Assembly (NCBI RefSeq): GCF_002879855.1
Contig: NZ_PNYB01000002.1
Span: 248,001 to 312,000 of the forward strand
From: Trinickia soli
Lineage (GTDB): Bacteria; Pseudomonadota; Gammaproteobacteria; Burkholderiales; Burkholderiaceae
Direction: 5' to 3'
DNA: 64,000 nt
Position 1 is the stretch's first letter. Each line of letters opens with the position of its first letter. Below are positions 49,147 through 64,000 of this stretch, one piece after another. The notes beneath the pieces are model-generated. The model saw only the letters and a program-made list of their open reading frames with translations. It did no database searches and was not told the DNA's origin. The translations under genes were made by a program, and so were the position numbers.

Positions 49147-50670
49147 TCAGCTCTCCACCTTGATCGGGATCGTCCGTTTGCCTTGGCCACCGAACAGGCT
49201 TGCGTCCTCATCGCCGTGATTGCAACCGTTGCCGAAGCTGAATCCGCAATCGCCACGCATGTCGAACGCATTCTCGGCGTACTCGCGATGCGACGTCGGA
49301 ATCACGAAGCGATCTTCATAATTCGCGATCGCCATCACGCGGTACATCGTCTCCATCGTTTCGACGCTCATGCCAACCTGGCGCAGCACCGTGTCGTCGG
49401 TGATGCCGTCCACATGCTTGGCACGTTGGTAAGCGCGCATCGCCAGCATCCGCTCGAGCGCACGCACGACCGGGCCTTCGTCGCCTGCCGTCAGCAGATT
49501 CGCGAGATATTTCACGGGAATCCGCAACTGGCTGACATCGGGAATCGCACCGTTCGCACCGATATGGCCCGCTTGCGCGGCGCCCGTGATCGGCGACAGC
49601 GGCGGCACATACCACACCATCGGCATCGTGCGGTACTCGGGGTGCAGCGGCAACGCAACCTGCCATTCGACGGCCATGCGGTACACGGGGCTGTTGCGCG
49701 CGGCGTCGAGCCAGTTCTCCGGCACGCCGTCACGCCGCGCCGCTTCGATCACGGCAGGATCGTGCGGATCGAGGAACACGTCGAGCTGCGCGCGATACAG
49801 GTCCTGCTCGTTCTCGACGCTGGCGGCCGCTTCGATCCGGTCGGCGTCGTAAAGCAACACGCCGAGATAGCGGATGCGCCCCACGCACGTTTCGGAGCAC
49901 ACGGTGGGCTGCCCCGCTTCAATACGCGGGTAGCAGAAGATGCACTTCTCCGCCTTGCCGCTCTTCCAGTTGTAGTAGATCTTTTTGTAGGGGCAACCGC
50001 TGACGCACATGCGCCAGCCGCGACACTTGTCCTGGTCGATCAGGACGATGCCGTCCTCCTCGCGCTTGTAGATCGAACCCGAGGGGCACGATGCCACGCA
50101 TGCGGGATTCAGGCAGTGTTCGCAAAGACGCGGCAGGTACATCATGAACGTATTCTCGAACTGTCCGTAGATGTCCTTTTGAATCGCCTCGAAATTGCTG
50201 TCCTGGCTGCGCTTCGAGAACTCGCCGCCCAGGATCTCCTCCCAGTTCGGCCCACCCGTGATCTTATCCATCGGCTGGCCCGTGATGAGGCTGCGCGGCC
50301 TGGCTGTCGGCGCCGCCTTCATTTCCGGCGCGCTTTGCAGATGATCGTAGTCGAACGTATAGGGCTCGTAGTAATCGTCGATCTGCGGCAGGTTCGGATT
50401 GGCGAAGATGCGCGAGAGCACCTTGAGCTTGCTGCCCTGGCGCGGTTCGATCGAACCGTCCTTTTTGCGAATCCAGCCGCCGTTCCACTTCTCCTGGTCT
50501 TCCCACTGTTTCGGATAGCCGACCCCGGGCTTCGTTTCGACGTTGTTGAACCACGCGTATTCAACGCCGGGCCGATTCGTCCAGACGTTCTTGCAGGTCA
50601 CGCTGCAGGTGTGGCAACCGATGCACTTGTCCAGGTTCAGCACCATGCCGATTTGGGCGCGCACTTTCAT
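49147..50670 (-). CDS. narH: Respiratory nitrate reductase beta subunit (iron-sulfur)
   Basis: Electron-transfer subunit carrying three [4Fe-4S] clusters and one [3Fe-4S] cluster. It has 507 residues. The first cysteine cluster, C16/C19/C22/C26, is numbered as in E. coli. CEHCLNPACVASCP and CRGWRMCVSGCPYKKIYYNW follow, the Trp in place of a Cys marking the [3Fe-4S] site, then CIFCYPRIEAGQPTVCSETC. The start overlaps the narG stop as ATGA. It sits at the cytoplasmic face with NarG. Confidence 0.98.
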   Translation of the reverse strand: MKVRAQIGMVLNLDKCIGCHTCSVTCKNVWTNRPGVEYAWFNNVETKPGVGYPKQWEDQEKWNGGWIRKKDGSIEPRQGSKLKVLSRIFANPNLPQIDDYYEPYTFDYDHLQSAPEMKAAPTARPRSLITGQPMDKITGGPNWEEILGGEFSKRSQDSNFEAIQKDIYGQFENTFMMYLPRLCEHCLNPACVASCPSGSIYKREEDGIVLIDQDKCRGWRMCVSGCPYKKIYYNWKSGKAEKCIFCYPRIEAGQPTVCSETCVGRIRYLGVLLYDADRIEAAASVENEQDLYRAQLDVFLDPHDPAVIEAARRDGVPENWLDAARNSPVYRMAVEWQVALPLHPEYRTMPMVWYVPPLSPITGAAQAGHIGANGAIPDVSQLRIPVKYLANLLTAGDEGPVVRALERMLAMRAYQRAKHVDGITDDTVLRQVGMSVETMETMYRVMAIANYEDRFVIPTSHREYAENAFDMRGDCGFSFGNGCNHGDEDASLFGGQGKRTIPIKVES

Positions 50671-53600
50671 TTTTCGACTCCTTGCGTTTGCGCCGCGCTC
50701 ACCGCAGCCGCGGGTTCGTCAAGCCAATCGACATGCCGCATCTTGCGCACGACCACGAACTCGTCGCGGTTGGTGCCGATCGTTCCGTAATAGTTGAAGC
50801 CGTAGCTGAGTTGCGCGTAGCCGCCGATCATATGCGTGGGCTTCAACACGATGCGCGTCACCGAGTTGTGAATGCCGCCGCGCACGCCCGTGATTTCCGA
50901 GCCGGGCGTATTGATGATCTTTTCCTGAGCGTGGTACATGAGCACCATGCCAGGCTTGACGCGCTGGCTGACCACCGCGCGCGCTGAGATCGCGCCGTTG
51001 ACATTGAACAGTTCGATCCAATCGTTGTCCTCGATGCCGGCCCGACGCGCGTCGTCTTCGCTGAGCCATACGACGGGACCGCCGCGATTGAGCGTCAACA
51101 TCAGCAGATTGTCGCTGTACGTGCTGTGGATGCCCCACTTCTGATGCGGCGTAATGAAGTTCAACACGATCTCGGTATTGCCGTTCGGCTTGACGCCGTT
51201 CATGAGATCCGTCGCCTTCATGTCAACGGGCGGGCGGTAACTGGTGAAGCCTTCGCCGAACGCGATCATCCAGGGATGGTCCTGGTAGAACTGTTGACGG
51301 CCGGTCAGGGTCCGCCAGGGAATCAGCTCGTAGACATTCGTGTAGCCCGCGTTGTAACTGACCGTCTCGCTCTCGATGCCGCTCCAGGTGGGCGAACTGA
51401 TGATCTTGCGCGGCTGTGCCTGGACGTCGCGATAGCGGATCTTCTCGTCTTCGCGCGCCAGAGCCAGGTGCGTATGATCGCGCCCTGTCGCCTTGGACAA
51501 CGCCTCCCATGCCTTGACCGCGACGTGGCCGTTCGTCTCCGGAGCAAGTTGCAGGATGACTTCGCACGCGTCGATGTCGGTGACGATACGCGGCATGCCT
51601 TGCGTTACACCGGCCTCCTGTGTCAATCCATTCAGTTGTCCTAACTGTTGGACCTCGGCTTCCGTCTTCCAGGCGATGCCCTTGCCGCCGTTGCCGATCG
51701 TCGTCATTAACGGGCCGAGCGCCGTGAACCGCTTGTACAGGTTCGGATAGTCACGCTCGACGAGCGTCACCTGCGGCGCTGTCTTTCCCGGTATCACCGC
51801 GCACTCGCCTTTGCGCCACTCGCGCACTTCGAACGGCTGCGCGAGCTCCGCGGGCGTGTCGTGCATGAGCGGCGTCATCACCACATCGCGTTCGACCCCC
51901 AGATGGTCCGGGCACACCTCGCTGAATGCCTTCGCAAAGCCCTTGTAAATTTCCCAATCCGAACGCGACTGCCAAACCGGGTCCACCGCCGCCGAGAGCG
52001 GATGAATGAACGGATGCATGTCGCTCGTGTTCAGATCGTTCTTCTCATACCAGCTCGCCGTCGGCAGCACGATGTCGGAGTACAGGCACGTCGTGCTCAT
52101 CCGGAAGTCGAGCGTGACGAGCAGATCGAGCTTGCCTTCCGGCGCCTGCGCGTGCCAGTTCACTTCCTGCGGCTTGGCGTCGCTCGGCCCAAGGTCCTTG
52201 CCCTGCACGCCGTTACTCGTCCCCAGCAAATGCTTGCAAAAATATTCGTGGCCCTTGCCCGACGAACCCAGCAGGTTCGACCGCCATACGAACATGTTGC
52301 GCGGCCAGTTTTCGGGGGCGTCGGGATCTTCGCAACTCATCTTCAAGTTGCCGCTTTCCAAGCCGTTAGCGACGAAATCACGGACATCCTGGCCTGCCCG
52401 CTCCGCCATGTCGGCGAGACGCAGCGGGTTCGTCGTCAACTGCGGTGCGCTCGGCAGCCAGCCCATGCGCTCGGCGCGTACGTTGTAGTCGATCATGCTC
52501 GCTTGCGCGTACGAAGCGTCGGCCAGCGGCGAGGCGATCTCGTCCGGACCCAGCTTCTCGTAGCGCCATTGATCGGTATGCGCATAGAAAAAGCTCGTAC
52601 TGTTCATCTGGCGCGGCGGGCGCGCCCAATCGAGCGCAAACGCCAGCGCCGTCCAGCCCGTCTGCGGCCTGAGCTTTTCCTGGCCGACATAGTGGGCCCA
52701 ACCGCCGCCGCTGCGGCCGATGCACCCGCACATCATCAAAAGATTGATGACGCCCCGGTAGTTCATATCGGCGTGATACCAGTGATTCATCGCCGCGCCG
52801 ATGATGACCATCGATTTGCCGTGCGTTTTGTCGGCGTTCTCGGCGAATTGGCGCGCCAGCGCAACGATCTGCCCGCGCGGGACGCCCGTGATCGATTCGG
52901 CCCATGCCGGCGTGTAAGCGGCGTCGACGTCGTAATTCGCTGCGCCGCTGCCCAGCCCGCGATCGACGCCGTACTGCGCGGCCTGCAGGTCGAACACCGT
53001 TGCGACGTAGGTTTCGTTGGCGCCGCCCGCGTCATTTGCATCGCCGCCGAGCGCGACGCGAACGGCCGGGACGCGCGCGACCGATATCGCGCCGCTTTGC
53101 GCGTTCGCGGGGAAATGAGGGTTGTGCACGCCGCCGAAGTACGGAAACGCCACGTCGACAATCTCATGCGCCTGCGGCGTATCTTCGAGCACGGAGAGTT
53201 TCAGGCTCACTGCGCCGTCGTTTTGCGCATCCCGTTCTTCAAGATTCCATTTGCCCGCATCGTCGCGCCCCTGCGCCCCCCAGCGAAATCCGATCGATCC
53301 GTTCGGCAATGCGACGCGGCCCGTGCGATCGAAGGCTACCGTTTTCCATTCGGGATTGTTCGTCTGCCCGAGGTGGCCGGCGAAATCGTTCGCGCGCAGA
53401 TACCGATCCGGCACGAGCGTCGTGCGGCCATCGGGCAACGTGTGCCGCTTGAGCATCACGAGCATCGGCATGTCGGTATAGCGCCGCACGTAGTCGTCGA
53501 AGTAGGCGCTGCGCTTGCGGAAGAAAAATTCCGTCAGGACGACATGGCCCATCGCCATGGCAAGCGCGGCGTCGGTGCCCTGCTTCGGGTGCAGCCACAG

Positions 53601-54479
53601 ATCGGCCAGCTTGGCTACTTCGCTATAGTCGGGCGTGATCGCAACGGTCTTTGCGCCCTTGTAGCGGACTTCGGTAAAGAAGTGGGCGTCGGGCGTGCGG
53701 GTCTGCGGCACGTTGCTGCCCCACGCGATGATGAACGTCGAGTTGTACCAGTCGGCCGATTCAGGCACGTCGGTTTGCTCGCCCCAGACCTGGGGGCTCG
53801 CCGGCGGCAGATCGCAGTACCAATCGTAAAAACTCATGCAGACGCCGCCGATCAGGCTCAGATAGCGGCTGCCCGCAGCGTAGCTGACCATGCTCATGGC
53901 CGGGATCGGCGAGAAGCCGATGATGCGATCGGGCCCGTGACGTTTGATCGTATAAACGTTCGCGGCGGCGACGAGGCGATTGACTTCATCCCAGGTGCTG
54001 CGCACGAAGCCGCCCATGCCGCGCACTTGCTGATAATCGCGCCGTGCTTCGTCGTTTTCGACGATCGACGCCCACGCATCGACGGGATCGCGATGCAAGG
54101 CCAACGCAGCGCGCCAGCGCTTGAGCAAGCGGCCCCGCACCATCGGATACTTGACCCGGTTTGCGCTGTACAGGTACCAGGAATACGAAGCGCCGCGCGC
54201 GCACCCGCGCGGCTCGTGATTGGGCATGTCCCAGCGCGTGCGCGGATAGTCGGTTTGCTGGGTTTCCCACGTGACGATGCCGCCCTTCACGTAGATCTTC
54301 CACGAGCATGAACCCGTGCAGTTGACGCCGTGCGTGCTGCGCACGATCTTGTCGTGCGACCAGCGGTTGCGATAGGCATCCTCCCACTTGCGATCTTCGC
54401 CGGTCGTGACGCCGTGGCCTTCCGAAAAGCGCTCCGACGGCAGTGCGAAGTGAATCAGTCGATCGAGAAAGTGACTCAT
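50667..54479 (-). CDS. narG: Respiratory nitrate reductase alpha subunit (molybdenum)
   Basis: Catalytic subunit that reduces nitrate to nitrite with a bis-MGD molybdenum cofactor, on the cytoplasmic side. It has 1270 residues (E. coli 1247). The FS0 iron-sulfur ligands H50, C54, C58 and C93 have the E. coli spacing. The molybdenum-Asp region reads ESADWYNSTFIIAWGSN, and further blocks include GAAMNHWYHADMNYR and LVTLDFRMSTTCLYSDIVLPTASWYEKND. Starting with MSHFLDRL, it lies 13 bases after the narK stop, with CGGAGC as ribosome binding site. Confidence 0.99.
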   Translation of the reverse strand: MSHFLDRLIHFALPSERFSEGHGVTTGEDRKWEDAYRNRWSHDKIVRSTHGVNCTGSCSWKIYVKGGIVTWETQQTDYPRTRWDMPNHEPRGCARGASYSWYLYSANRVKYPMVRGRLLKRWRAALALHRDPVDAWASIVENDEARRDYQQVRGMGGFVRSTWDEVNRLVAAANVYTIKRHGPDRIIGFSPIPAMSMVSYAAGSRYLSLIGGVCMSFYDWYCDLPPASPQVWGEQTDVPESADWYNSTFIIAWGSNVPQTRTPDAHFFTEVRYKGAKTVAITPDYSEVAKLADLWLHPKQGTDAALAMAMGHVVLTEFFFRKRSAYFDDYVRRYTDMPMLVMLKRHTLPDGRTTLVPDRYLRANDFAGHLGQTNNPEWKTVAFDRTGRVALPNGSIGFRWGAQGRDDAGKWNLEERDAQNDGAVSLKLSVLEDTPQAHEIVDVAFPYFGGVHNPHFPANAQSGAISVARVPAVRVALGGDANDAGGANETYVATVFDLQAAQYGVDRGLGSGAANYDVDAAYTPAWAESITGVPRGQIVALARQFAENADKTHGKSMVIIGAAMNHWYHADMNYRGVINLLMMCGCIGRSGGGWAHYVGQEKLRPQTGWTALAFALDWARPPRQMNSTSFFYAHTDQWRYEKLGPDEIASPLADASYAQASMIDYNVRAERMGWLPSAPQLTTNPLRLADMAERAGQDVRDFVANGLESGNLKMSCEDPDAPENWPRNMFVWRSNLLGSSGKGHEYFCKHLLGTSNGVQGKDLGPSDAKPQEVNWHAQAPEGKLDLLVTLDFRMSTTCLYSDIVLPTASWYEKNDLNTSDMHPFIHPLSAAVDPVWQSRSDWEIYKGFAKAFSEVCPDHLGVERDVVMTPLMHDTPAELAQPFEVREWRKGECAVIPGKTAPQVTLVERDYPNLYKRFTALGPLMTTIGNGGKGIAWKTEAEVQQLGQLNGLTQEAGVTQGMPRIVTDIDACEVILQLAPETNGHVAVKAWEALSKATGRDHTHLALAREDEKIRYRDVQAQPRKIISSPTWSGIESETVSYNAGYTNVYELIPWRTLTGRQQFYQDHPWMIAFGEGFTSYRPPVDMKATDLMNGVKPNGNTEIVLNFITPHQKWGIHSTYSDNLLMLTLNRGGPVVWLSEDDARRAGIEDNDWIELFNVNGAISARAVVSQRVKPGMVLMYHAQEKIINTPGSEITGVRGGIHNSVTRIVLKPTHMIGGYAQLSYGFNYYGTIGTNRDEFVVVRKMRHVDWLDEPAAAVSAAQTQGVEK

Positions 54480-54492
54480 GGATGCTCCGAAT

Positions 54493-55902
54493 TCAACATG
54501 GCATCGGTGCTCGGCGGCGCGCGTACTGCCACCACGTCACCGCGATACAGATCAGATAAAACCCGATGAAGACGTACAGCGCTGCCTCGGGGCCGCCCGT
54601 CAGCGAGATCGAGGTGCCGTAGCTCTTGGGGATGAAGAAGCCACCGTACGCCGCCATTGCCGCGGTAAAGCCCAGCGTGGCCGCGGCCTCGGTGTTGCCC
54701 TGCTTCGTCGCGCGCTCGATCGCCGCGCGGTCGTGCGGATCGGCCTCTTTCAGGTTCAAGGCGAGAAAGATCACCGGAATCATGCGGAACGTCGAACCGT
54801 TGCCGATGCCCGTCGTGAAGAACAGCACGAGAAAGCTCAGGAAGAAGCCGCCGAAGCTGCCGCCCGACGGCCCAGAGGGCAGGAAGAACAGCACGCCGCC
54901 GACCGCCAACGCCATCACGACGAAATTCCAGAGCGTGACGCGTGCGCCGCCAAGCTTATCGGCGAGCCAGCCGCCGAAAGGACGCACGATTGCACCGATC
55001 AACGGGCCGAGCCAGGCATAGGCAAGCGGATTGACGGTCGGAAATTCGTTCTTGATCAACAAGGGAAAGCCGGCCGCATAGCCGATGAACGAACCGAAGG
55101 TGCCGAGGTAGAGCAGGCACATGAGCCAGTTGTGTTTGCGTCGGAAGATCGCCGCCTGCGCCGCGAAGGAAGCCTTCGCTTCGGCGATGTCGTTCATGCC
55201 GAACCACGCGGCGAGCGATGCCACCGCGATCCACGGCACCCAGATGAACGCCGCGTTTTGCATCCAGACCTGCGATACATGCCCGGCCTTGACGATCGTT
55301 TGCGGCGCGCCGCCGAAGATGCCGAGCACGCCTGCGGTGACCACGAGCGGACTCAGAAACTGCACGACAGACACGCCGAGATTGCCGAGACCCGCGTTGA
55401 CGCCGAGCGCGGAGCCTTTGCGCTCCTTCGGAAAGAAGAAGCTGATGTTGGCCATGCTCGAACTGAAGTTGCCGCCGCCGAAGCCGCACAGCAGCGCAAG
55501 TGCGAGCATGGTGCCGTAAGGCGTCGTGTTGTCTTGCACGGCAAAGCCGATGCCGAGCGCAGGCACGAGCAGGGATGCCGTCGAGATGGCCGTCCAGCGT
55601 CGACCGCCGACGAGCGGCACCATAAACGAATAGAAGATGCGCAACGTCGCACCGCTCAGCGCGGGAGCGGCGGCGAGCCAAAACAGTTGATCCGTCGTGT
55701 ATTTGAATCCCAGCCCGGGCAAGCTGACGGCGACGACGCTCCAGACTTGCCAGATTGCAAAGGCCAGGAACAGGGCCGGCACCGAAATCCAAAGATTGAG
55801 CTTCGCAACGGCTTCGCCCTCGCGCTCCCAAAAGGCCTTGTCCTCGGGCGTCCAGATGTCCAGCGTGTGGCCGCTTCGCTGCGTCAGCGAACGGATGGTC
55901 AT
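54493..55902 (-). CDS. narK: Nitrate/nitrite transporter (NarK family)
   Basis: Twelve-segment MFS transporter bringing in nitrate and/or exporting nitrite. It has 469 residues. The nitrate-signature glycine-rich motifs are visible: ALLCGFGGGNFSSSMANISFFFPKERKGSALGVNAGLGNLGVS and FFTTGIGNGSTFRMIP, with the conserved Arg in each substrate-binding half. The N-terminal extension (about 40 residues) contains WTPEDKAFWEREG, common in proteobacterial NarK. It is the first gene of narKGHJI, behind an FNR-dependent promoter. Confidence 0.97.
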   Translation of the reverse strand: MTIRSLTQRSGHTLDIWTPEDKAFWEREGEAVAKLNLWISVPALFLAFAIWQVWSVVAVSLPGLGFKYTTDQLFWLAAAPALSGATLRIFYSFMVPLVGGRRWTAISTASLLVPALGIGFAVQDNTTPYGTMLALALLCGFGGGNFSSSMANISFFFPKERKGSALGVNAGLGNLGVSVVQFLSPLVVTAGVLGIFGGAPQTIVKAGHVSQVWMQNAAFIWVPWIAVASLAAWFGMNDIAEAKASFAAQAAIFRRKHNWLMCLLYLGTFGSFIGYAAGFPLLIKNEFPTVNPLAYAWLGPLIGAIVRPFGGWLADKLGGARVTLWNFVVMALAVGGVLFFLPSGPSGGSFGGFFLSFLVLFFTTGIGNGSTFRMIPVIFLALNLKEADPHDRAAIERATKQGNTEAAATLGFTAAMAAYGGFFIPKSYGTSISLTGGPEAALYVFIGFYLICIAVTWWQYARRRAPMPC

Positions 55903-56221: not shown

Positions 56222-56758
56222 TCAGCTCGCCAGTGCGAAATCGAGTGGCCAGCGCTTGCGCAGAAAGTCGATGATGTTCTGATCGAGTGCGGGCGAAGCG
56301 TACACCCACGTCACCGGCCCAGCGGCGAGCTTCGGCAGTTTTTCGCAGCGAATACCTGCATGCACGAGCGGTAAGTTGCGCGCGCGGTACCACTCGATAT
56401 CCGCGGCGGCGCCGGGGTCGTCGCTGTAGCAGAGCCACTCGGCGGCAAAGGCGGCCTGCGCTGACGCCAACGCGTTGCTTACGCCTTCCGGCAGCGGAGA
56501 GCGATTCCCAAGGACGATCTCCGTCGGCGGGTACGCAATCACCCAATCGTCGTAAACGTCGTCGCTGACGCTGTGATAGAAGGTCGCTTCGTGCATCGAA
56601 TAGTAGCGCTCGAGCATGAAGAAGCTCGCCACGAATCCGCCGCGTGACGGTCCCGTGTACCAGCCGTAAACGTTCTCGCCGTCCACGAGCACGACGACGG
56701 CGCACATCAGGCCTGGCCCGTGCGGCTCGTAGACAAGGTAGGTCGCGCGTTGATTCAT
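56222..56758 (-). CDS. Hypothetical protein upstream of the nar operon
   Basis: Not recognised. From the ATG at 56758, with a strong AAAGGAG, it has 178 residues: soluble, aromatic-rich (YLVYEPHGPGLMCAVVVLVDGENVYGWYTGPSRGGFVASFFMLERYYSMHEATFYH) with a C-terminal TWVYASPALDQNIIDFLRKRWPLDF. The same frame stays open for 107 more codons upstream and there encodes a Cys-rich, protein-like stretch, so a longer form is possible. It is on the nar strand but separated from narK by the FNR promoter. Confidence 0.65.
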   Translation of the reverse strand: MNQRATYLVYEPHGPGLMCAVVVLVDGENVYGWYTGPSRGGFVASFFMLERYYSMHEATFYHSVSDDVYDDWVIAYPPTEIVLGNRSPLPEGVSNALASAQAAFAAEWLCYSDDPGAAADIEWYRARNLPLVHAGIRCEKLPKLAAGPVTWVYASPALDQNIIDFLRKRWPLDFALAS

Positions 56759-57189
56759 GACGCTCTCCTTTGCCACGTACGGCGCGCTTGCGCGAGCCGC
56801 CTGCTGCTCCATGCTGTCGATGCAGGCGCCCCTTCCGGGCGTGACCGCTTCGGCGTACCAACGGCGAAAAAATTCGCCACCCTGCCGCAACTCGTCGGCC
56901 GTTAGGGCGTCGAATGGCTTCGAACAGCGCAGTTCGGCAGGCTGCACAGCGGCACAATGGGCGCAATGGGCGCACGGTACGCTGCTCAGCCTAGCGTGCG
57001 CCGCCCCGTTGCGGTGCGCTTTGATCGCCGTCAAACCTGCGTGCATCGCCTCTCGCCGTGGCGCTTTGACGCCGATCAACGCATGCGATTTCGCACGCGC
57101 TTACGCTGGCCGTGAGCGTCGTGCAGCGCGGCGGACGCCATGGGGCGAACGCCAATCAGGGCCGCATCGGAGCGGCAAGGAGCATCGGA
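56759..57189. other. Interval between two divergent hypothetical genes
   Basis: If the short start of the 178-residue protein is right, these 431 bases hold only promoters. The minus-strand frame continuing through them (to 57079) reads CAHCAHCAAVQPAELRC and FDALTADELRQGGEFFRRW, which looks more like protein than chance, and may be a true N-terminal extension. No promoter motif was convincing. Confidence 0.35.
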
Positions 57190-57729: not shown

Positions 57730-59916
57730 CTACTTCGCCTTCGGCTGAAAACCCTCGGCGCCGACCTGCCAGAGCGAGAACGCCCATTCGTCTGCGAAAC
57801 GGTCGGCCGTTTGCTTGACGCTCGAGCCGATGCCATGCCCCGCATCGTAGTCGACCCGCAGCAATACGGGCCGCCCGCTCGAGGTTGCGGCTTGCACGCG
57901 CGCTGTCATTTTCAGCATGTGCCACGGCGAGACGCGCGGATCGTTCGCCCCCGTCGTAAACATGACGGCGGGATATGGCGTGCCGTCATGAATGTGCGCG
58001 TAGGCACTCATTGCGTAGAGCCCATGAAAACCGGCTTCGGTCGTCGTCGAGCCCATTTCGGGCACGTTCGGCGGGCCGTTCGGCTCCGTCTCGAAGCGCA
58101 ACGTATCGGATACGCCGACGTCATCGAGCACGACGCGGAACAGGCCCGGATCGAGTGTCAGGGCACCGCCCATCACGATGCCACCCGCGCTGCGCCCGTT
58201 CGCCACCAGATAGCGACGCTGCGTATAGCCTTGGTCGATCATGTAATGCGCGCCCGCCAGGAAGTCGAACATCGTGTTGATCTTCCACTGCTTTTGGCCG
58301 GCACGGTGCCAGGCATCGCCATACTCGCCGCCGCCTCGCATATGCACGACCGTCATGATGCCGCCCTGCTCGAACCAGGCGCGCCACGCCGGTTGATAGT
58401 TGGGGTCCAGCGACAAGCCATAGCTGCCGTAGCCGTAGATGATCGTCGGATGCGAACCGTCGCGCGCAATGCCCTTCTTCGAAATGATCGAAATCGGCAC
58501 CCGCGTGCCGTCGTAGCTCGTGGCGAACGTTTCCTGCGCCTCCAGTTCGTCCGACTCCGTCGTCGATGGCGGAATGAGTCCCGTGTCGGCCGCCGCGGCC
58601 GCACCCGGCGCATAGGCGATCTCGCGCGGCGCCTTGATCCAACCGCGCAGCTCGAACATCACGCCCGGCAGCTTCGCGTCGGGCTGAAGATCGCGAATCG
58701 CGCCCGCGAACGGTAGCCCGATCGTGCGATCGTCCTTGCCGTCGAAACCGGTCCGGTGCAGCTCGAACGTTGCGCCGGCGCGCTCGGCAAGGTATATCCC
58801 GTCGCTCGCCAGTGCAAAGGAGTCAATGACGTTGAGCCCCTCGGGCACGATCGTCGTCGCATGCGCGAGATCGGGACGCGCTGCCGGCATCGACACCACC
58901 TTGAAGCGCGAGGCGTCCTTGCCCGTCAACGCATAGAGACGATCGCCGTGCAGTTGCACGTCGACGACGCCGTCTTCCGGGCTCGCGATTTTCTTCCACG
59001 GCGTTTTGGCGCCGTGGATGTCGGCGAGTCGGGCAACGTAGAACGTATTCGGATTGTTATCCATGTTGTGATTCGCGACGGCAACGGCATACGGCGAATC
59101 GGGCGAAAGCAAGACGTAAGTCCCCTGTCCCTCGGGCACGTCGAGTTGCGCCGACACGCCGCGGCCGAAGACCGCGGCGTCGCCGTCGCCATCGGCGTGC
59201 TGCCCCAGCACGTGCAGGTGCGTCACTGCGTTGTACTCGCTTTGCGCAGGCGGCGTATTGGGGCCGACCTTCGGATAGCGCAGATAGAAGAACGAGCGAT
59301 TGTCGTTGCGCCAGGACACCACGCACGAACTCGTGCGGTCGATCGCTTCGGCGAGTGCCCGGCCCGTTTGCACGTCGACCACGTGCAACACGCTCTGCTC
59401 CGAACCGCCTTCGGAAATGCCATACGCGACGTAGCGGCCGTCCCACGATGGCGCGTACCAATCGAGCGCGTAATGGCGCGCGCTGTCCTTCGACAACGCG
59501 GCGGGGTCGACGAGCACGTGCTCTTCGCCGTCGACGCCGTCGCGATAGGCCAGCTTCAGCAGGTTTTCGCCCGCCGCGGCCGTTTGGTAAAACAGCCGAT
59601 GGCCTCGTCGCATGAAATCCGTGCGACGCAGATCGCCGCCCATCAACGACTCGACGCGCTGCACCAGCGCATTGCGGCCCGGAATCGCCGCCAGCGTGCG
59701 CCGCGTGTAGTCGTCCTGCGCCTTCATCCACGCCTGGACCACGGGATCTTTCAGGTTCTCCATGTAGCGGTAATTGTCGACGACCGGCGTGCCGTAATAC
59801 GTATTCGTGACGGGATGCACGGGGGCGACGGGGGGAAGGTCGGCCGACCAGGCAGCGCTCGAGGCGGTGAGACAAGACAGAACCGTTACGGCTAGAAGAG
59901 GCTTGTTTCGTTTCAT
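57730..59916 (-). CDS. Exported prolyl oligopeptidase family peptidase (S9A)
   Basis: Serine peptidase of 728 residues with a signal peptide (MKRNKPLLAVTVLSCLTASSAAWSA), so it is periplasmic or secreted. The N-terminal part begins with HPVTNTYYGTPVVDNYRYMENL, followed by the seven-bladed propeller. The catalytic domain has S576 in NGRSAGGIVMG, D659 in GANDPRVSPWHMLK and H694 in DAGHGIGSS. The family cleaves short proline-containing peptides. It is followed by a convergent small gene, and it lies next to the tape-measure-like gene on the same strand with 174 bases between; a shared role is not implied. Confidence 0.95.
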   Translation of the reverse strand: MKRNKPLLAVTVLSCLTASSAAWSADLPPVAPVHPVTNTYYGTPVVDNYRYMENLKDPVVQAWMKAQDDYTRRTLAAIPGRNALVQRVESLMGGDLRRTDFMRRGHRLFYQTAAAGENLLKLAYRDGVDGEEHVLVDPAALSKDSARHYALDWYAPSWDGRYVAYGISEGGSEQSVLHVVDVQTGRALAEAIDRTSSCVVSWRNDNRSFFYLRYPKVGPNTPPAQSEYNAVTHLHVLGQHADGDGDAAVFGRGVSAQLDVPEGQGTYVLLSPDSPYAVAVANHNMDNNPNTFYVARLADIHGAKTPWKKIASPEDGVVDVQLHGDRLYALTGKDASRFKVVSMPAARPDLAHATTIVPEGLNVIDSFALASDGIYLAERAGATFELHRTGFDGKDDRTIGLPFAGAIRDLQPDAKLPGVMFELRGWIKAPREIAYAPGAAAAADTGLIPPSTTESDELEAQETFATSYDGTRVPISIISKKGIARDGSHPTIIYGYGSYGLSLDPNYQPAWRAWFEQGGIMTVVHMRGGGEYGDAWHRAGQKQWKINTMFDFLAGAHYMIDQGYTQRRYLVANGRSAGGIVMGGALTLDPGLFRVVLDDVGVSDTLRFETEPNGPPNVPEMGSTTTEAGFHGLYAMSAYAHIHDGTPYPAVMFTTGANDPRVSPWHMLKMTARVQAATSSGRPVLLRVDYDAGHGIGSSVKQTADRFADEWAFSLWQVGAEGFQPKAK

Positions 59917-60090
59917 TGTTGTGCTCGCTCCAAGTAACGACGCGCAAGATTAACGCGCGGCGCGCCCCGACGATAGTAGAGAACTTGCTCGAATGATGGC
60001 GCCAAGTGAGCATCACGATCGCGCGGCGGGTTTTATTGCGCAGCATCGATCGCCCGGCGCAGACGTCGGCTTCGCGCTTGATCCCGGCCT

Positions 60091-63000
60091 TCAGGACCGG
60101 CGATCGCGCCAATTGACGATCAGCAATTCCGGCATCCACGCGAGCCGCACCATCGACAGGTTCCAGGGAAGCGTGTCGAGCAGGACATCGAATGCCTTCC
60201 CCTCGACGGACAGGCGCCAGTGCGGCTCCGCGCCGTCTTCGCGTTCGAGCCGGCCGCTTCGCATCAGAAACGACTCGCGCAGCCCTTCGATGGTCGTGCC
60301 GCGCAACTTGTCCCAGTTTTGCTTGACGCCGTTCAGCAGCCCCTCCGACAACCCAAGCTCGCGCTCGTCGCGTTCGCGGTCTGCACCGGCAGCGAGCGGC
60401 AGCGCGGGCGCCACGCCGCACATGACCTTGGCGAGTGGCAGCAGCGCCTCGTGGCGAGCGATGGCGTTGCAGGCCAGTGCGTGCAACAAATGCACGGCGC
60501 GACTTTGGGCATCGAAATCGACAAAGCGCCCGCCGCGTTGGAGTTCGAGCATTTCGAAGTACCGCGATAGAAACGGCCACAACATCACCATGCCGGCGTT
60601 TTCAACCTGGATCGGTGTGCTCGGCATATCGGGCGGCTCCGGTTTTCTGTCCTCCGGTGTGCCGGGGGCGCGGGTAGGCTGTCGTCGCTCGGGCGTTTCG
60701 GATGCGCTACGTGCCGGCGGGCCGGCGTCGAGCATCGACTCGCGCGCGGACAGCCAGGCAATCCAGTCGCGCGCGAGCGAGGCGTCGCGAGTCGTACCGG
60801 TCACAGCGCGGCGCCAGCGCGCGAGCACTTGCCGCCGCGTGACGGATTGAGCCGGTGCGCTCGGGCTCTGCGAAATCCCGCGGGATGCTTCGATCGCCCG
60901 GTGGCCAGGGTCGGCGAACGTTGCTTCGACGAGCGTCGCCAGCATGGCTTTCTCCCCGCCTCGCCGCGCATAGCGCAACCAAATGGCCTGTGCTTTCAGG
61001 CGCATCTGCTCGCCGGCCGACGGAGCGAACGCCATCGCCGCGTCGCAAAGCGCAACGGCCACCGGCGCCAGAGGCAATGACAAGATGCGTGTGACGAGTA
61101 CGAACGTTTCGCCGCGCAGCGACGCCAATCGCGAGAAACCGGGTTCGGTCACCACCGTGCGCTCGATCAAACGCGCCAATATGCGCGGTGCGGTTTGAGC
61201 CAATCGGTGGAACGCAGCGTGCAGCAGAGTTGGCGACTGACTCTCTCCGTAGCGCAGATAGGCCACGATCAACGGTAGGTCTGCGCCGGTCCGGTGCGGC
61301 GCGTCGGTCGATTGCCCGGCCGGGCTTATCTCATCGTGCGGGCCAGTTGGCTTTGTGAGCTTCGTCAGCTTTGTTTGCCTTGCGGCCGCCGCAGCGGTTG
61401 CCTGCGATATGGTGGCAAGGGCATCTGTCGATGTGGCGGCCGCTGCCCCGGCCATGCCGCCTGCGCTCATGCGGGCACTCTGCTGCGCGCGTTCATCCGT
61501 GGGTGAACCAGGCGTCACGCGCTGCGCGGTCAATGCAGCGAGCGCCTCACGAAGCGCTGTCGATCCGGGTGACACGAAGGCCATCAGATGTTCAGCGACA
61601 GTCCCCGCATCGAAACCCGTGCGTCGGGCAAGGCCCTCGACGACGCGCGCGATCCTCGTGTCAAGCGACATCTGCGCGCCCGACGGCGACAGCAAAGCCG
61701 CGAGCCACGCACGCCGGGCTTCGCGCGCCATCCCCGGCCGGCCCAGCCGCCTTGCCATTGCCGAGGCAGCGTCGAGTAGCTCTTTCGATGCCTGGCCATG
61801 CGCGCTCTCAAGCGTCGACATCAAAAGCGGTACCGCGTCCGGCCTCAAAAAAGCCGACAGTCGACGCAGCACTGCCGGATCGGCGCTGCGCGCGCGCAGC
61901 CGCTCCATGACCTGCCCGCCACGCTCTTGCAATGCGAGTTCGAGCCACTGCCGGGACGGCATCGCGAGCCAGGGCGCTGCCTCGGCGTCAACGTGCCCCG
62001 TCGAAAAGAATTCGACGAATGCTTGCGCAGCGCCCGGCGCGTCGTTGCGATCGGCCAACGCGGTACGCACCGCCTCCCGCGGCAACCTACGCCACAAACG
62101 GCGAAGCTGAGCGCGTCCGCGGTCCGCTTCGTTCCAGACCGGGTTGCGCGCGAGCGCCGCCAACCAGCGACGCAACGGTATGCCGTGATAGCGTGCAAGC
62201 CGTGTCAGCATCGCGAGCACGGCATCGACCGAGCCGATCGACGCGTCGCTCGATGTCGCCCCAGGCTTGGGCGAGCCCGTTGCAGTCAATCTCGCCCGAT
62301 GCGACAGCGCACTCAGTTCGGCCGCATCGAATCGCGTGGGCGTCAAGCGCAGCGCGCGCAGCAACCCGGGCCACGACGCAACGAACGCAGCGGCGAGGTC
62401 GCCGGACCCGGCAACGGCCGATGCTTCACGAAGGCCTTCTATCGCTGCAGGAACCGGCTTGGCCGCAGCTAACGACGACCCGGATTCGCCAACGACATCC
62501 GGCGCCGCATCACGGCCGGCGTTCGTGGCCACTCGCACGAGCCCGGCGCGCAGCATACGCATCCGCCGCACAGTCCCCGGTGCACTGTGCGTCGCCAGCA
62601 ACAGCACGTCGACGAGTTCTGCCGGGGGCAGTTGCATCGCCTCCGCCGCTTTTGTCAGCATCCGCTCAAGCCAAATCGTTTCTGAGAAGGCCCCCGCTCG
62701 TAGTGCAACGAGCGTTTCGAGCGTCGCCGCCGATATCGCCCGCCGTAATGTCGCGCGTCGCGACATCGGCCACGGCGTGTGCTCGATCAATGCATCGAGT
62801 GCCGCGAGCGTGCCGACGATGCTCCGCGCAGCCGTAGGCTCGATTTCGGCAATCCATTCGGCGCGCGCCTTGGCGTCGAGCGAAGCGGCCAAACGCTCCT
62901 GCCGCCTTTGCACGTCGACGCTCCGCAGGCGAGTCCGACCACCGCGGTTTGGGCCGCCTTCGCCGCCACCGACACTCCATGCATCGTCGCCGCGCAACAA

Positions 63001-64000
63001 CGCAACCATGCGGGAGGGCGAACGGCGGGCGATGCGTAACGCCACTTTCACCGGGTCGAAGTTTTCGTCTGCAAACCACGGCAGTGCGCCGAAATCCAGG
63101 TAAAAGGCGAGCGTTTGCGCATCGCGGGCATCGCCTTCGGCCGGCATGCGGTCGTCTTCTTGCGGATCGACCTCGCGCGCAACATGTTCTCCGTCTTGCT
63201 CGTGCGAGGCATGGATACCCGGCCCCTCGGGTCTGGCCCGCAGCGCGGCGTCTTCGCGCAGGTCGACCAGAATCCGGTGCAACGATTCATCGCGCTCGAC
63301 CTCCTTGGAAGCCGATCCCAACCGCTCGAGCAATGCATCGATCAACGTGAGGTACTCGAGCCCTGCCCGCGTCGCCAAGCCTCGCAGCAGCGCGGAGAGG
63401 AACGAACGTCGGTTGAAGCGGCCACCGCGGTCCGCCAGCAGGTAGGCAAAAACCGTTTGCCAAAGCGCGTCGTCGAAATCGTCGGGACGCATTCGCGCAA
63501 CGGGCGCTGCACGCTGACGCGCGGCGACATAGCGCACATCGCCGAGCACCTCTTGCGCATCGTTCGGTCGAAGCGCTTGCACCGCACGCACACGCATCGT
63601 CGCCGTCATCGCACCGACCCAGCGCTCGCGGCGCGCCGTATGCCGTCCATGCTCGCGCATCAACCGAACGAGCGCGGCCGTATCGGCATCGAGCGCATCG
63701 AGGAAGGTCTGTTCGATCGTGTCGGCGCCAGCGGTGACGCGGCCTTCGAACCATGCAGCGAGCCTCGACAGACGCGCATCGCCCCACGCATGCGACCCCG
63801 CACCCGCATGGTTGGACGCCCTGCTCCCTGGGGGCTCCGCCGACGCGGCCAGATCCGAGAATCCTGGCGCGGTCGATGTCGCACTGCGCGCGTCCGTGCT
63901 CTGATCCGCCACGGTTCGCCTGGCACCGACGACGGACGCCGGAAAGCCGAATCGGTCGATCAGCGCCGTACGCAAAAGCCCCACGAGCCGCTCTTCGAGT
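60091..64000 (-). CDS. Contractile injection system tape measure protein, N-terminus cut off
   Basis: Very large helical, Ala/Arg/Leu-rich protein; about 1300 residues are visible and the frame is still open at the window edge (reading LEERLVGLLRTALIDRFG), so the true start is outside. The last 200 residues carry the C-terminal signature of CIS tape measure proteins: NAGMVMLWPFLSRYFEML, FVDFDAQSRAVHLLHAL, LPLAKVMCGV, LRESFLMRSGRL and KAFDVLLDTLPWNLSMVRLAWMP. Such proteins set the length of phage-tail-like contractile injectors. The middle has low-complexity linkers (residues about 255-285, 840-920 and 1090-1115). Baseplate, sheath and ATPase genes would be expected to the right. Confidence 0.85.
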   Translation of the reverse strand, partial: LEERLVGLLRTALIDRFGFPASVVGARRTVADQSTDARSATSTAPGFSDLAASAEPPGSRASNHAGAGSHAWGDARLSRLAAWFEGRVTAGADTIEQTFLDALDADTAALVRLMREHGRHTARRERWVGAMTATMRVRAVQALRPNDAQEVLGDVRYVAARQRAAPVARMRPDDFDDALWQTVFAYLLADRGGRFNRRSFLSALLRGLATRAGLEYLTLIDALLERLGSASKEVERDESLHRILVDLREDAALRARPEGPGIHASHEQDGEHVAREVDPQEDDRMPAEGDARDAQTLAFYLDFGALPWFADENFDPVKVALRIARRSPSRMVALLRGDDAWSVGGGEGGPNRGGRTRLRSVDVQRRQERLAASLDAKARAEWIAEIEPTAARSIVGTLAALDALIEHTPWPMSRRATLRRAISAATLETLVALRAGAFSETIWLERMLTKAAEAMQLPPAELVDVLLLATHSAPGTVRRMRMLRAGLVRVATNAGRDAAPDVVGESGSSLAAAKPVPAAIEGLREASAVAGSGDLAAAFVASWPGLLRALRLTPTRFDAAELSALSHRARLTATGSPKPGATSSDASIGSVDAVLAMLTRLARYHGIPLRRWLAALARNPVWNEADRGRAQLRRLWRRLPREAVRTALADRNDAPGAAQAFVEFFSTGHVDAEAAPWLAMPSRQWLELALQERGGQVMERLRARSADPAVLRRLSAFLRPDAVPLLMSTLESAHGQASKELLDAASAMARRLGRPGMAREARRAWLAALLSPSGAQMSLDTRIARVVEGLARRTGFDAGTVAEHLMAFVSPGSTALREALAALTAQRVTPGSPTDERAQQSARMSAGGMAGAAAATSTDALATISQATAAAAARQTKLTKLTKPTGPHDEISPAGQSTDAPHRTGADLPLIVAYLRYGESQSPTLLHAAFHRLAQTAPRILARLIERTVVTEPGFSRLASLRGETFVLVTRILSLPLAPVAVALCDAAMAFAPSAGEQMRLKAQAIWLRYARRGGEKAMLATLVEATFADPGHRAIEASRGISQSPSAPAQSVTRRQVLARWRRAVTGTTRDASLARDWIAWLSARESMLDAGPPARSASETPERRQPTRAPGTPEDRKPEPPDMPSTPIQVENAGMVMLWPFLSRYFEMLELQRGGRFVDFDAQSRAVHLLHALACNAIARHEALLPLAKVMCGVAPALPLAAGADRERDERELGLSEGLLNGVKQNWDKLRGTTIEGLRESFLMRSGRLEREDGAEPHWRLSVEGKAFDVLLDTLPWNLSMVRLAWMPELLIVNWRDRRS

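What the first reader, a model, noticed from the sequence alone, without database searches (positions are those of the whole stretch)
60091..64000. Edge of a contractile injection system locus in a Burkholderiaceae genome
The C-terminal 200 residues match the pattern of contractile injection system tape measure proteins (NAGMVMLWPFL, LPLAKVMCGV, LRESFLMRSGRL, DVLLDTLPWNLSMVRLAWMP). The protein is over 1300 residues and unfinished at the window edge. Extracellular injection systems of this type are scattered and mostly uncharacterised in Burkholderiales, and the payload and target are unknown. The visible gene would be one end of the locus.
Basis: partly seen in the sequence, partly recalled or inferred. 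Interest (0 to 1): 0.8.

Follow-up and report, generated by a model that had tools for sequence, protein, structure and literature searches.

The report
Injection machine with far-off toxin genes
The window ends inside a complete gene set for a phage-tail-like protein syringe; its probable toxin cargo is not beside it, as is usual, but appears to be encoded by three related genes on another part of the genome, which matters because it suggests how to find the cargo of such syringes when nothing is encoded next to them.

Summary
The finding holds. The protein at 60091-64000(-) is a 1377-aa tape measure (CIS_TMP, E 4e-82), last gene of a canonical extracellular contractile injection system (eCIS). 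The next 18 kb on the same contig hold AAA+ ATPase, Pvc16-type cap, sheath, two tubes, CIS_tube, VgrG spike, PAAR, gp25, baseplate proteins and a fibre-like protein. No payload lies beside it; the slot after the tape measure is a 174-bp gap. In two nearest relatives that slot holds an eCIS_core (DUF4157) protein. This genome has three such proteins, all on another contig, with similar N-termini and unrelated C-termini, one with a nuclease domain. In 398 family genomes this core subclass is in 20 of 20 with this machine type and 4 of 378 without; in 50 machine-bearing genomes of several phyla it is in 48, within 40 kb of the spike gene in 36. The payloads are therefore probably encoded in trans. 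Shared ancestry inflates these counts. The machine is a new member of a known kind; the unlinked payload set is the interesting part. Loading is inferred, not shown.

The parts
60091..64000 (-). Tape-measure protein Cis14 (CIS_TMP), 1377 aa; the gene runs on to window-equivalent 64224 on contig C26. The other genes of the locus lie beyond the window edge and are listed in the full report in contig coordinates
   Evidence: Pfam PF19268 E 4.4e-82 for the full ORF; ORF
59917..60090 (.). 174-bp gap after the tape measure: the 'payload slot' that holds an eCIS_core protein in two nearest relatives and is empty here
   Evidence: L256, L257; ORFs on either side

Best explanation
The tape measure in the window is the terminal gene of a complete extracellular contractile injection system with all frames open: a phage-tail-like particle whose sheath contracts and drives a tube tipped by VgrG and PAAR through a target membrane. 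Its payloads are encoded in trans. Three orphan proteins on contig C15 (about 99.7, 261.5 and 474.4 kb) carry a shared N-terminal module, a leader with SPRxxxQ-type motifs plus an eCIS_core (DUF4157) domain of a subclass marked by HEAWH, followed by unrelated C-terminal parts, one with a DNA/RNA non-specific endonuclease domain. The N-terminal module is read as the address that brings each payload, with help of the AAA+ ATPase, into the tube; the C-terminal part acts in the target cell. Shown: machine genes and order, the three orphan proteins and their architecture, co-occurrence with the machine type, occupancy of the slot in two relatives. Inferred: particle assembly and release, loading, ATPase role, toxicity, target.
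For: Machine: core set on one strand over 22 kb; none of the 15 ORFs has an internal stop; 13 of the 15 genes have BLAST relatives in all of 9 other loci compared; the nearest solved structures are CIS particles. Payloads: three eCIS_core ORFs in this genome, 0 of 14 control genomes; N-terminal parts 54-58% identical over 136-174 aa, no significant match between C-termini; nuclease domain in one. Slot: in two nearest relatives (VgrG 76-77% identical) the gene after the tape measure is an eCIS_core protein of this subclass; beside it in one of them a short ORF starts with 45 residues that align at 62.5% identity with the start of this genome's third core protein. Co-occurrence: subclass in 20 of 20 machine genomes against 4 of 378 others; in one genus of 32, in 13 of 13 with and 0 of 19 without; in 48 of 50 machine genomes from several phyla, 36 with a copy within 40 kb of the spike gene. 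Modularity: 35 such proteins share the N-terminal module, only 4 pairs have similar C-termini at E 1e-5; C-terminal Pfam hits include nuclease, ADP-ribosyltransferase, phosphatase and Ntox15.
Against: No experiment; nothing shows that particles are made or the three proteins loaded. The p-values (4e-30 and 3e-9) ignore shared ancestry: on a tree of the groEL region of 30 of the 32 genus genomes only 3 independent supported changes exist, sign test p 0.25. The genome has a second, different CIS on contig C6 that could be the user; G005 too has a second sheath gene (35% identical to that of C6). Subclass cores also occur in 3 genomes with a B'-type CIS (G006, G008, G267), and G003, with neither, has a core that only its match length puts in the subclass. 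Of the 50 named machine genomes two lack the subclass (G407, G433). The leader pattern was chosen after seeing the sequences; in 17 held-out leaders it is in 6 (shuffle mean 0.75), while another motif, QG[KR]F, is in 9.
Confidence: 0.7

Rival explanations
1. The three orphan eCIS_core proteins are cargo of the second CIS (C6:80239-97454), not of the system at the window edge, whose own cargo is lost.
For: The second system is in the same genome. Its more distant relatives (sheath 39-41% identical) in G006, G008 and G267 have subclass cores on the same contig, within about 27 kb.
Against: Its close relatives (sheath 53-57% identical) in G001, G002, G007 and G009 have no subclass core, 0 of 4; G001 has one core of the other class. 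The cores beside the B'-type systems have other leaders: SPRxxQ or DNRP in 1 of 6, against 28 of 29 in genomes of the window's type. Two nearest relatives of the window's system carry such a core right after the tape measure.
Confidence: 0.15
2. The locus is a machine without cargo: the payload beside the tape measure was lost and the C15 proteins are remnants or cargo of something else, such as a type VI secretion system.
For: The slot after the tape measure is empty. PMC11297309 (passage seen) notes that DUF4157 is sometimes present in type VI effectors.
Against: The 15 machine ORFs are open and so are the three payload ORFs. In complete or near-complete genomes of another genus the arrangement recurs: core 0.55 to 1.65 Mb from the tape measure in G111, G139, G160, G167 and G203, so an unlinked payload is not peculiar to one genome.
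Confidence: 0.15
3. The machine works inside the cell or anchored to a membrane, like the thylakoid-anchored CIS of Anabaena or the cytoplasmic CIS of Streptomyces, and is not released.
For: Anabaena tCIS proteins are among the nearest solved relatives (7b5h for sheath, spike and Cis12). No long tail-fibre gene was recognised. In G111 and G355 a 909-1089 aa protein that reads like an exported protein with C-terminal membrane segments follows the ATPase, and ORFs of like size stand there in G115, G139, G167 and G185.
Against: No relative of the G111 form of that protein was found in this genome (the tool warns that an empty answer alone shows little). AlgoCIS, described as extracellular (title of PMC8894135, listing seen), is about as near. 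Fibre-like relatives of the 262-aa protein gave 61 ORF hits in the 80 named loci.
Confidence: 0.15

Closest known systems
SalCis particle (PDB 9r9h, 9r9i, 9r9n, 9rce)
   Same: Sheath matches over residues 35-544, E 1.6e-147; spike 9rce_F is the best hit of the VgrG profile; 'SalCis12' matches Cis12
   Different: Organism, payload and paper not found here: the word SalCIS is in 0 papers of the library, so cargo and gene order could not be compared
AlgoCIS of Algoriphagus machipongonensis (PDB 7adz, 7aeb, 7aef)
   Same: Sheath, spike and Cis12 homologous
   Different: A marine bacterium of another lineage; a passage of PMC11297309 discusses its effector Cgo1 and the DUF4157 motif; gene order there was not compared
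Thylakoid-anchored CIS of Anabaena (PDB 7b5h, 7b5i; PMC8894136)
   Same: Sheath, spike and Cis12 homologous; a two-protein cap Cis16A/Cis16B, of which the 380-aa protein may be the second; two DUF4157 proteins, Alr3311 and Alr3312, were detected with it by mass spectrometry (passages seen)
   Different: The All3326 match is weak (E 0.0034); anchoring was not tested
PVC and Afp (Photorhabdus, Serratia)
   Same: Same kinds of core parts; cargo loading by N-terminal signal peptides and the Pvc15 ATPase is reported there, and signal peptides are said to group by sequence alignment within eCIS clades (PMC11495950, passages seen)
   Different: Three sheath paralogues each among the hits, cargo encoded downstream of the operon; sheath and spike less alike than those of AlgoCIS and tCIS
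DUF4157/eCIS-associated toxins (PMC8213781, PMC11297309)
   Same: N-terminal DUF4157 with variable C-terminal toxin domain
   Different: The training toxins there lie almost entirely within ten genes of the operon and no specific conserved signal-peptide sequence is reported (passages and section 10 seen); their classifier was run on whole genomes, so unlinked ones may be in its dataset, which I did not see

Membership tests
Extracellular contractile injection system (eCIS) | Contractile sheath and inner tube of phage-tail type | tested here: met
Extracellular contractile injection system (eCIS) | Spike complex: VgrG/GPD, PAAR, CIS_tube protein | tested here: met
Extracellular contractile injection system (eCIS) | Baseplate: gp25, J-like Cis11, Cis12 | tested here: met
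Extracellular contractile injection system (eCIS) | CIS_TMP tape measure, AAA+ ATPase and Pvc16-type cap in the same run of genes | tested here: met
Extracellular contractile injection system (eCIS) | DUF4157 payload gene beside the operon (usual, not universal) | tested here: not met
   the three eCIS_core matches of the genome are all on another contig
Extracellular contractile injection system (eCIS) | Tail fibre that binds the target | tested here: inconclusive
   only a 262-aa fibre-like protein, no Pfam match over a cut-off
Extracellular contractile injection system (eCIS) | Released particle | not testable with these tools
   needs microscopy of culture material
Type VI secretion system | Membrane complex TssJLM, TssK, ClpV | not tested
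   no Pfam hit of this kind among the locus proteins scanned; the rest of the genome was not searched for them
eCIS payload (DUF4157 protein) | eCIS_core domain with HExxH near the N-terminus and a variable domain behind it | tested here: met
eCIS payload (DUF4157 protein) | Loaded into the particle | not testable with these tools
   needs proteomics of particles

The most novel reading that the evidence does not exclude
This class of eCIS uses a genome-wide set of unlinked payloads addressed to one machine by a leader-plus-core module. Different machines and lineages use different leader vocabularies (SPRxxxQ and DNRP in Burkholderiaceae with this machine, other leaders beside B'-type systems, QG[KR]F repeats in other, mostly gammaproteobacterial, genomes), so cargo of a machine with no neighbouring cargo can be found by reading the address. 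A corollary is split cargo: in some relatives the address module stands alone, next to a separate membrane-like protein.
Probability: 0.45. Interest if true: 0.7.

Novelty: new member of a known kind. Interest (0 to 1): 0.5.

Why it matters
Cargo of most eCIS is unknown, and published searches lean on genes near the operon. Here the machine has no neighbouring cargo, yet the genome holds three candidates recognisable by a shared N-terminal module, and the same pairing of machine type and module recurs in other genera and phyla. If loading is confirmed, the module gives a direct way to list cargo in such genomes and makes the question of what the DUF4157 domain does testable.

Tried and rejected
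Toxin fused to the tape measure or spike: no extra Pfam domain in either. Cis12 ORF first taken as a possible payload because it has no Pfam hit; rejected by its match to solved baseplate proteins. Prolyl oligopeptidase at 57730-59916 as payload: a Peptidase_S9 protein with an N-terminus that reads like an export signal (my reading), no core or leader, and not seen after the tape measure in the two relatives. Anti-phage reading of the ATPase: PADLOC and NCBIfam hits to IetA/IteA cover the shared AAA domain, 93 bits against an NCBIfam cut-off of 510. Homologue of the accessory protein of G111 in this genome: none found. PDB relatives by sequence of two of the three orphan proteins: none at E 0.01; the third was not tried. 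A universal leader motif: not supported, 6 of 17 held-out leaders. Papers: 'Trinickia' with 'contractile injection' 0 papers; 'SalCIS' 0; searches for unlinked or orphan cargo listed nothing whose title or abstract start describes this arrangement; only open-licence PMC text is searched.

Rows dropped before counts. Family sample: cores of G077, G121 and G136:C4 were inspected and are not of the subclass; cores of clearly longer match were put in the other class by match length, and of these only G001, G136:C4, G245 and G255 were inspected; a partial core at G185:C2:204916 was left out. G003 is counted among the 4 of 378 by match length alone. Ten of the 30 CIS_TMP genomes (G025, G026, G054, G060, G085, G092, G094, G102, G150, G245) were not counted as this machine type, because the tape measure is up to about 820 aa or a fragment and the sheath hits, where there are any, look like other kinds; of these only G245 has an eCIS_core. 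The type call of the 20 rests on tape-measure and sheath hits; gene order was checked in 10 including this genome. Named set: 50 of the 80 loci were given to the search; four odd matches (G409:C38, G420:C11:655036, G421:C81:46016, G426:C56) were left out of the 88 cores; the subclass there is by match length, with sequence seen for 18 loci. Of those 19 cores in 18 loci, two (L245, L249) overlap the family sample and were left out of the 17 held-out leaders.
Full report
Observation. The frame 60091-63999(-) is real and holds all the stretches quoted. The window is contig C26:248001-312000 of a 6.10-Mb draft genome in 103 contigs. Continued across the edge, the ORF is 1377 aa, C26:308091-312224(-), with a CIS_TMP match of 277 bits, E 4.4e-82.

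Machine. Genes on contig C26, all on the minus strand (window position = contig position minus 248000; all but the first lie beyond the window edge): tape measure 308091-312224 (PF19268); Cis12 312224-315598, start chosen by me (no Pfam; solved baseplate proteins); 262-aa fibre-like protein 315598-316386; baseplate J 316383-320567 (PF04865; TIGR02243 below its cut-off); gp25 320589-321032 (PF04965); PAAR 321041-321340 (PF05488); VgrG-like spike 321383-323173 (PF04717 and PF05954); CIS_tube 323170-323835 (PF19266); DUF5908 323835-324020 (PF19265); tubes 324042-324503 and 324578-325030 (PF06841); sheath 325064-326698 as ORF (PF17482); 380-aa protein 327043-328185 (no Pfam); Pvc16_N cap 328182-328895 (PF14065); AAA+ ATPase 328825-330300 (PF00004). 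None of the 15 ORFs has an internal stop.

Relatives of the machine. The sheath's best solved relative is PDB 9r9h, E 1.6e-147, then AlgoCIS and the Anabaena tCIS; PVC and Afp are more distant. Spike and Cis12 have the same three kinds of relatives first. In 9 other loci compared, 13 of the 15 genes have BLAST relatives in all 9; the 380-aa protein has them in 3 of 9 and DUF5908 in 2 of 9; baseplate J is two ORFs in G111; ATPase and cap genes stand at either end of the run.

Who carries it. A scan of named genomes with the spike alignment gave 452 relatives, best 80 kept, whose record titles name Beta-, Gamma-, Alpha- and Deltaproteobacteria, Chloroflexi, Bacteroidota and others. The window's genome shares the genus code of G005; 2 of the 11 genomes of that genus, this one included, have a related tape measure.

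Missing cargo. The next gene beyond the tape measure is 174 bp away and is a prolyl oligopeptidase. In two nearest relatives, Burkholderia sp. 4M9327F10 and a Paraburkholderia MAG (spike 76-77% identical), the next large ORF after the tape measure on the same strand, of 1642 and 740 aa, has an eCIS_core match. In this genome all three eCIS_core matches are on C15. A pattern search of the window plus 56 kb to its right found no PHEAWH; two leader-like matches were in plus-strand frames that overlap the tape measure.

Orphan cargo candidates. The three ORFs have 1126, 913 and 1048 aa. Their N-terminal parts are 54-58% identical over 136-174 aa; the rest shows no significant match. The 913-aa protein has Endonuclea_NS_2, E 1.1e-6. 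If the contigs are as assembled, the nearest is at least about 100 kb from the machine (contig lengths and places; my arithmetic). They belong to a subclass with HEAWH as the zinc-site motif: in 35 such proteins from 23 genomes 29 columns are invariant. Only 4 pairs have similar C-termini at E 1e-5, one of them this genome's third protein with that of C. pampae. Pfam finds eCIS_core in 35 of 35, Endonuclea_NS_2 in 2, and in 1 each Exotox-A_cataly, ART, ADPrib_exo_Tox, PARP, DSPc, Ntox15 and others, some of which may fall on the same protein. Several of these families act on eukaryotic targets in known proteins (recalled), so eukaryotes are plausible targets, but that is not shown for this genome.

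Co-occurrence. In 398 family genomes CIS_TMP is in 30 and eCIS_core in 61. By tape-measure and sheath hits 20 of the 30 have this machine type. The subclass is in 20 of 20 of these and 4 of 378 others (G003 of the 4 by match length only). Of 29 subclass cores in the 20 genomes, 4 lie within 40 kb of the tape measure; the other 25 lie further off or on other contigs, in five complete or near-complete genomes 0.55-1.65 Mb away. In one genus of 32 genomes, which all bear handles of the family sample, the machine is in 13 and eCIS_core in the same 13. These counts overstate independence: on a tree of the groEL region (gene and flanks, 30 of 32 genomes) the label changes 4 times and gives 3 independent pairs on supported branches. 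The pairing recurs in five genus groups (g1, g3, g11, g14, g25), and in 48 of 50 named machine genomes, 45 of 47 without the three shared with the family sample. There, 46 of 88 cores are within 40 kb of the spike gene, in 36 genomes; 12 genomes have only unlinked ones and 12 have both. Draft contigs can hide linkage.

Which machine. The genome has a second CIS on C6 with lower third-position G+C (0.65-0.74 against 0.74-0.88 for the first). Close relatives of that system occur in four genus members without the subclass; distant ones (B'-type) occur in G006, G008 and G267 with subclass cores nearby but mostly with other leaders. G005 has a sheath of this second kind too (35% identical). SPRxxQ-type or DNRP motifs are in 28 of 29 leaders of the first type and 1 of 6 of the second; shuffled leaders of the first type give means of 0.98 and 0.05 for the two motifs, against 22 and 15 seen. 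The patterns were chosen after looking. In 17 held-out leaders the first is in 6, DNRP in 0 and a QG[KR]F motif, noticed in these same leaders, in 9 (shuffle means 0.75, 0.02 and 0.03). So leaders differ by lineage and perhaps by machine; a single code is not shown.

Mechanism. By analogy to PVC, where an N-terminal signal peptide and the Pvc15 ATPase load cargo and signal peptides group by alignment (PMC11495950, passages seen), the leader-plus-core module is read as the loading address. PMC11297309 (passages and section 10 seen) reports that its training toxins lie almost entirely under ten genes from the last core gene, that no specific conserved signal-peptide sequence was detected, and suggests DUF4157 as a chaperone in cis or from nearby genes. 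PMC8213781 (passages seen) names DUF4157 as an eCIS core domain. PMC12923769 (passages and section 6 seen) classifies fibre anchors; I did not test the 262-aa protein against its models. Unlinked cargo of this kind was not described in what I read, but I did not see supplements or datasets.

Verdict. The machine is a new member of a known kind; the unlinked cargo set and the leader vocabularies are what deserve a test.

Noticed in passing
G000 contig C6:80239-97454 (loci L014, L015): A second, different CIS in the same genome: Pvc16_N, sheath, tubes, CIS_tube, spike, baseplate J (10 proteins scanned, no AAA+ among them; no CIS_TMP match on C6); lower third-position G+C may mean later arrival.
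   Followed up: partly
L133:324-3593 and L118:8204-10933; like-sized ORFs at the same place in G115, G139, G167, G185: A 909-1089 aa protein that reads like an exported protein with C-terminal membrane segments follows the ATPase in some relatives; the three scanned gave one Pfam hit, He_PIG.
   Followed up: partly
L019:4025-4291 and L019:3141-3998: In T. dinghuensis an 88-aa ORF with the leader motif but no core stands beside a 285-aa protein that reads like a membrane protein; possible split cargo.
   Followed up: no
L111:4576-6494 (G191); core-only ORFs also in L107, L113, L114: Core-only proteins of 177-199 aa; in G191 the ORF overlaps a 440-aa membrane-like protein by 4 bases. In these four genomes a groEL gene lies within about 13 kb.
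   Followed up: partly
L239, L248, L250-L255: Copies of QG[KR]F, up to 8, in the leaders of subclass cores, often as PLQGKF.
   Followed up: partly
L016 around 670-1882: Two transposase-like ORFs (recalled resemblance to IS3 and IS110) a few kb from the first orphan core gene.
   Followed up: no
window 49147-55902: Nitrate reductase alpha and beta subunits and an MFS transporter.
   Followed up: no
window 56222-57079: 285-aa ORF without a Pfam match over its cut-off.
   Followed up: no
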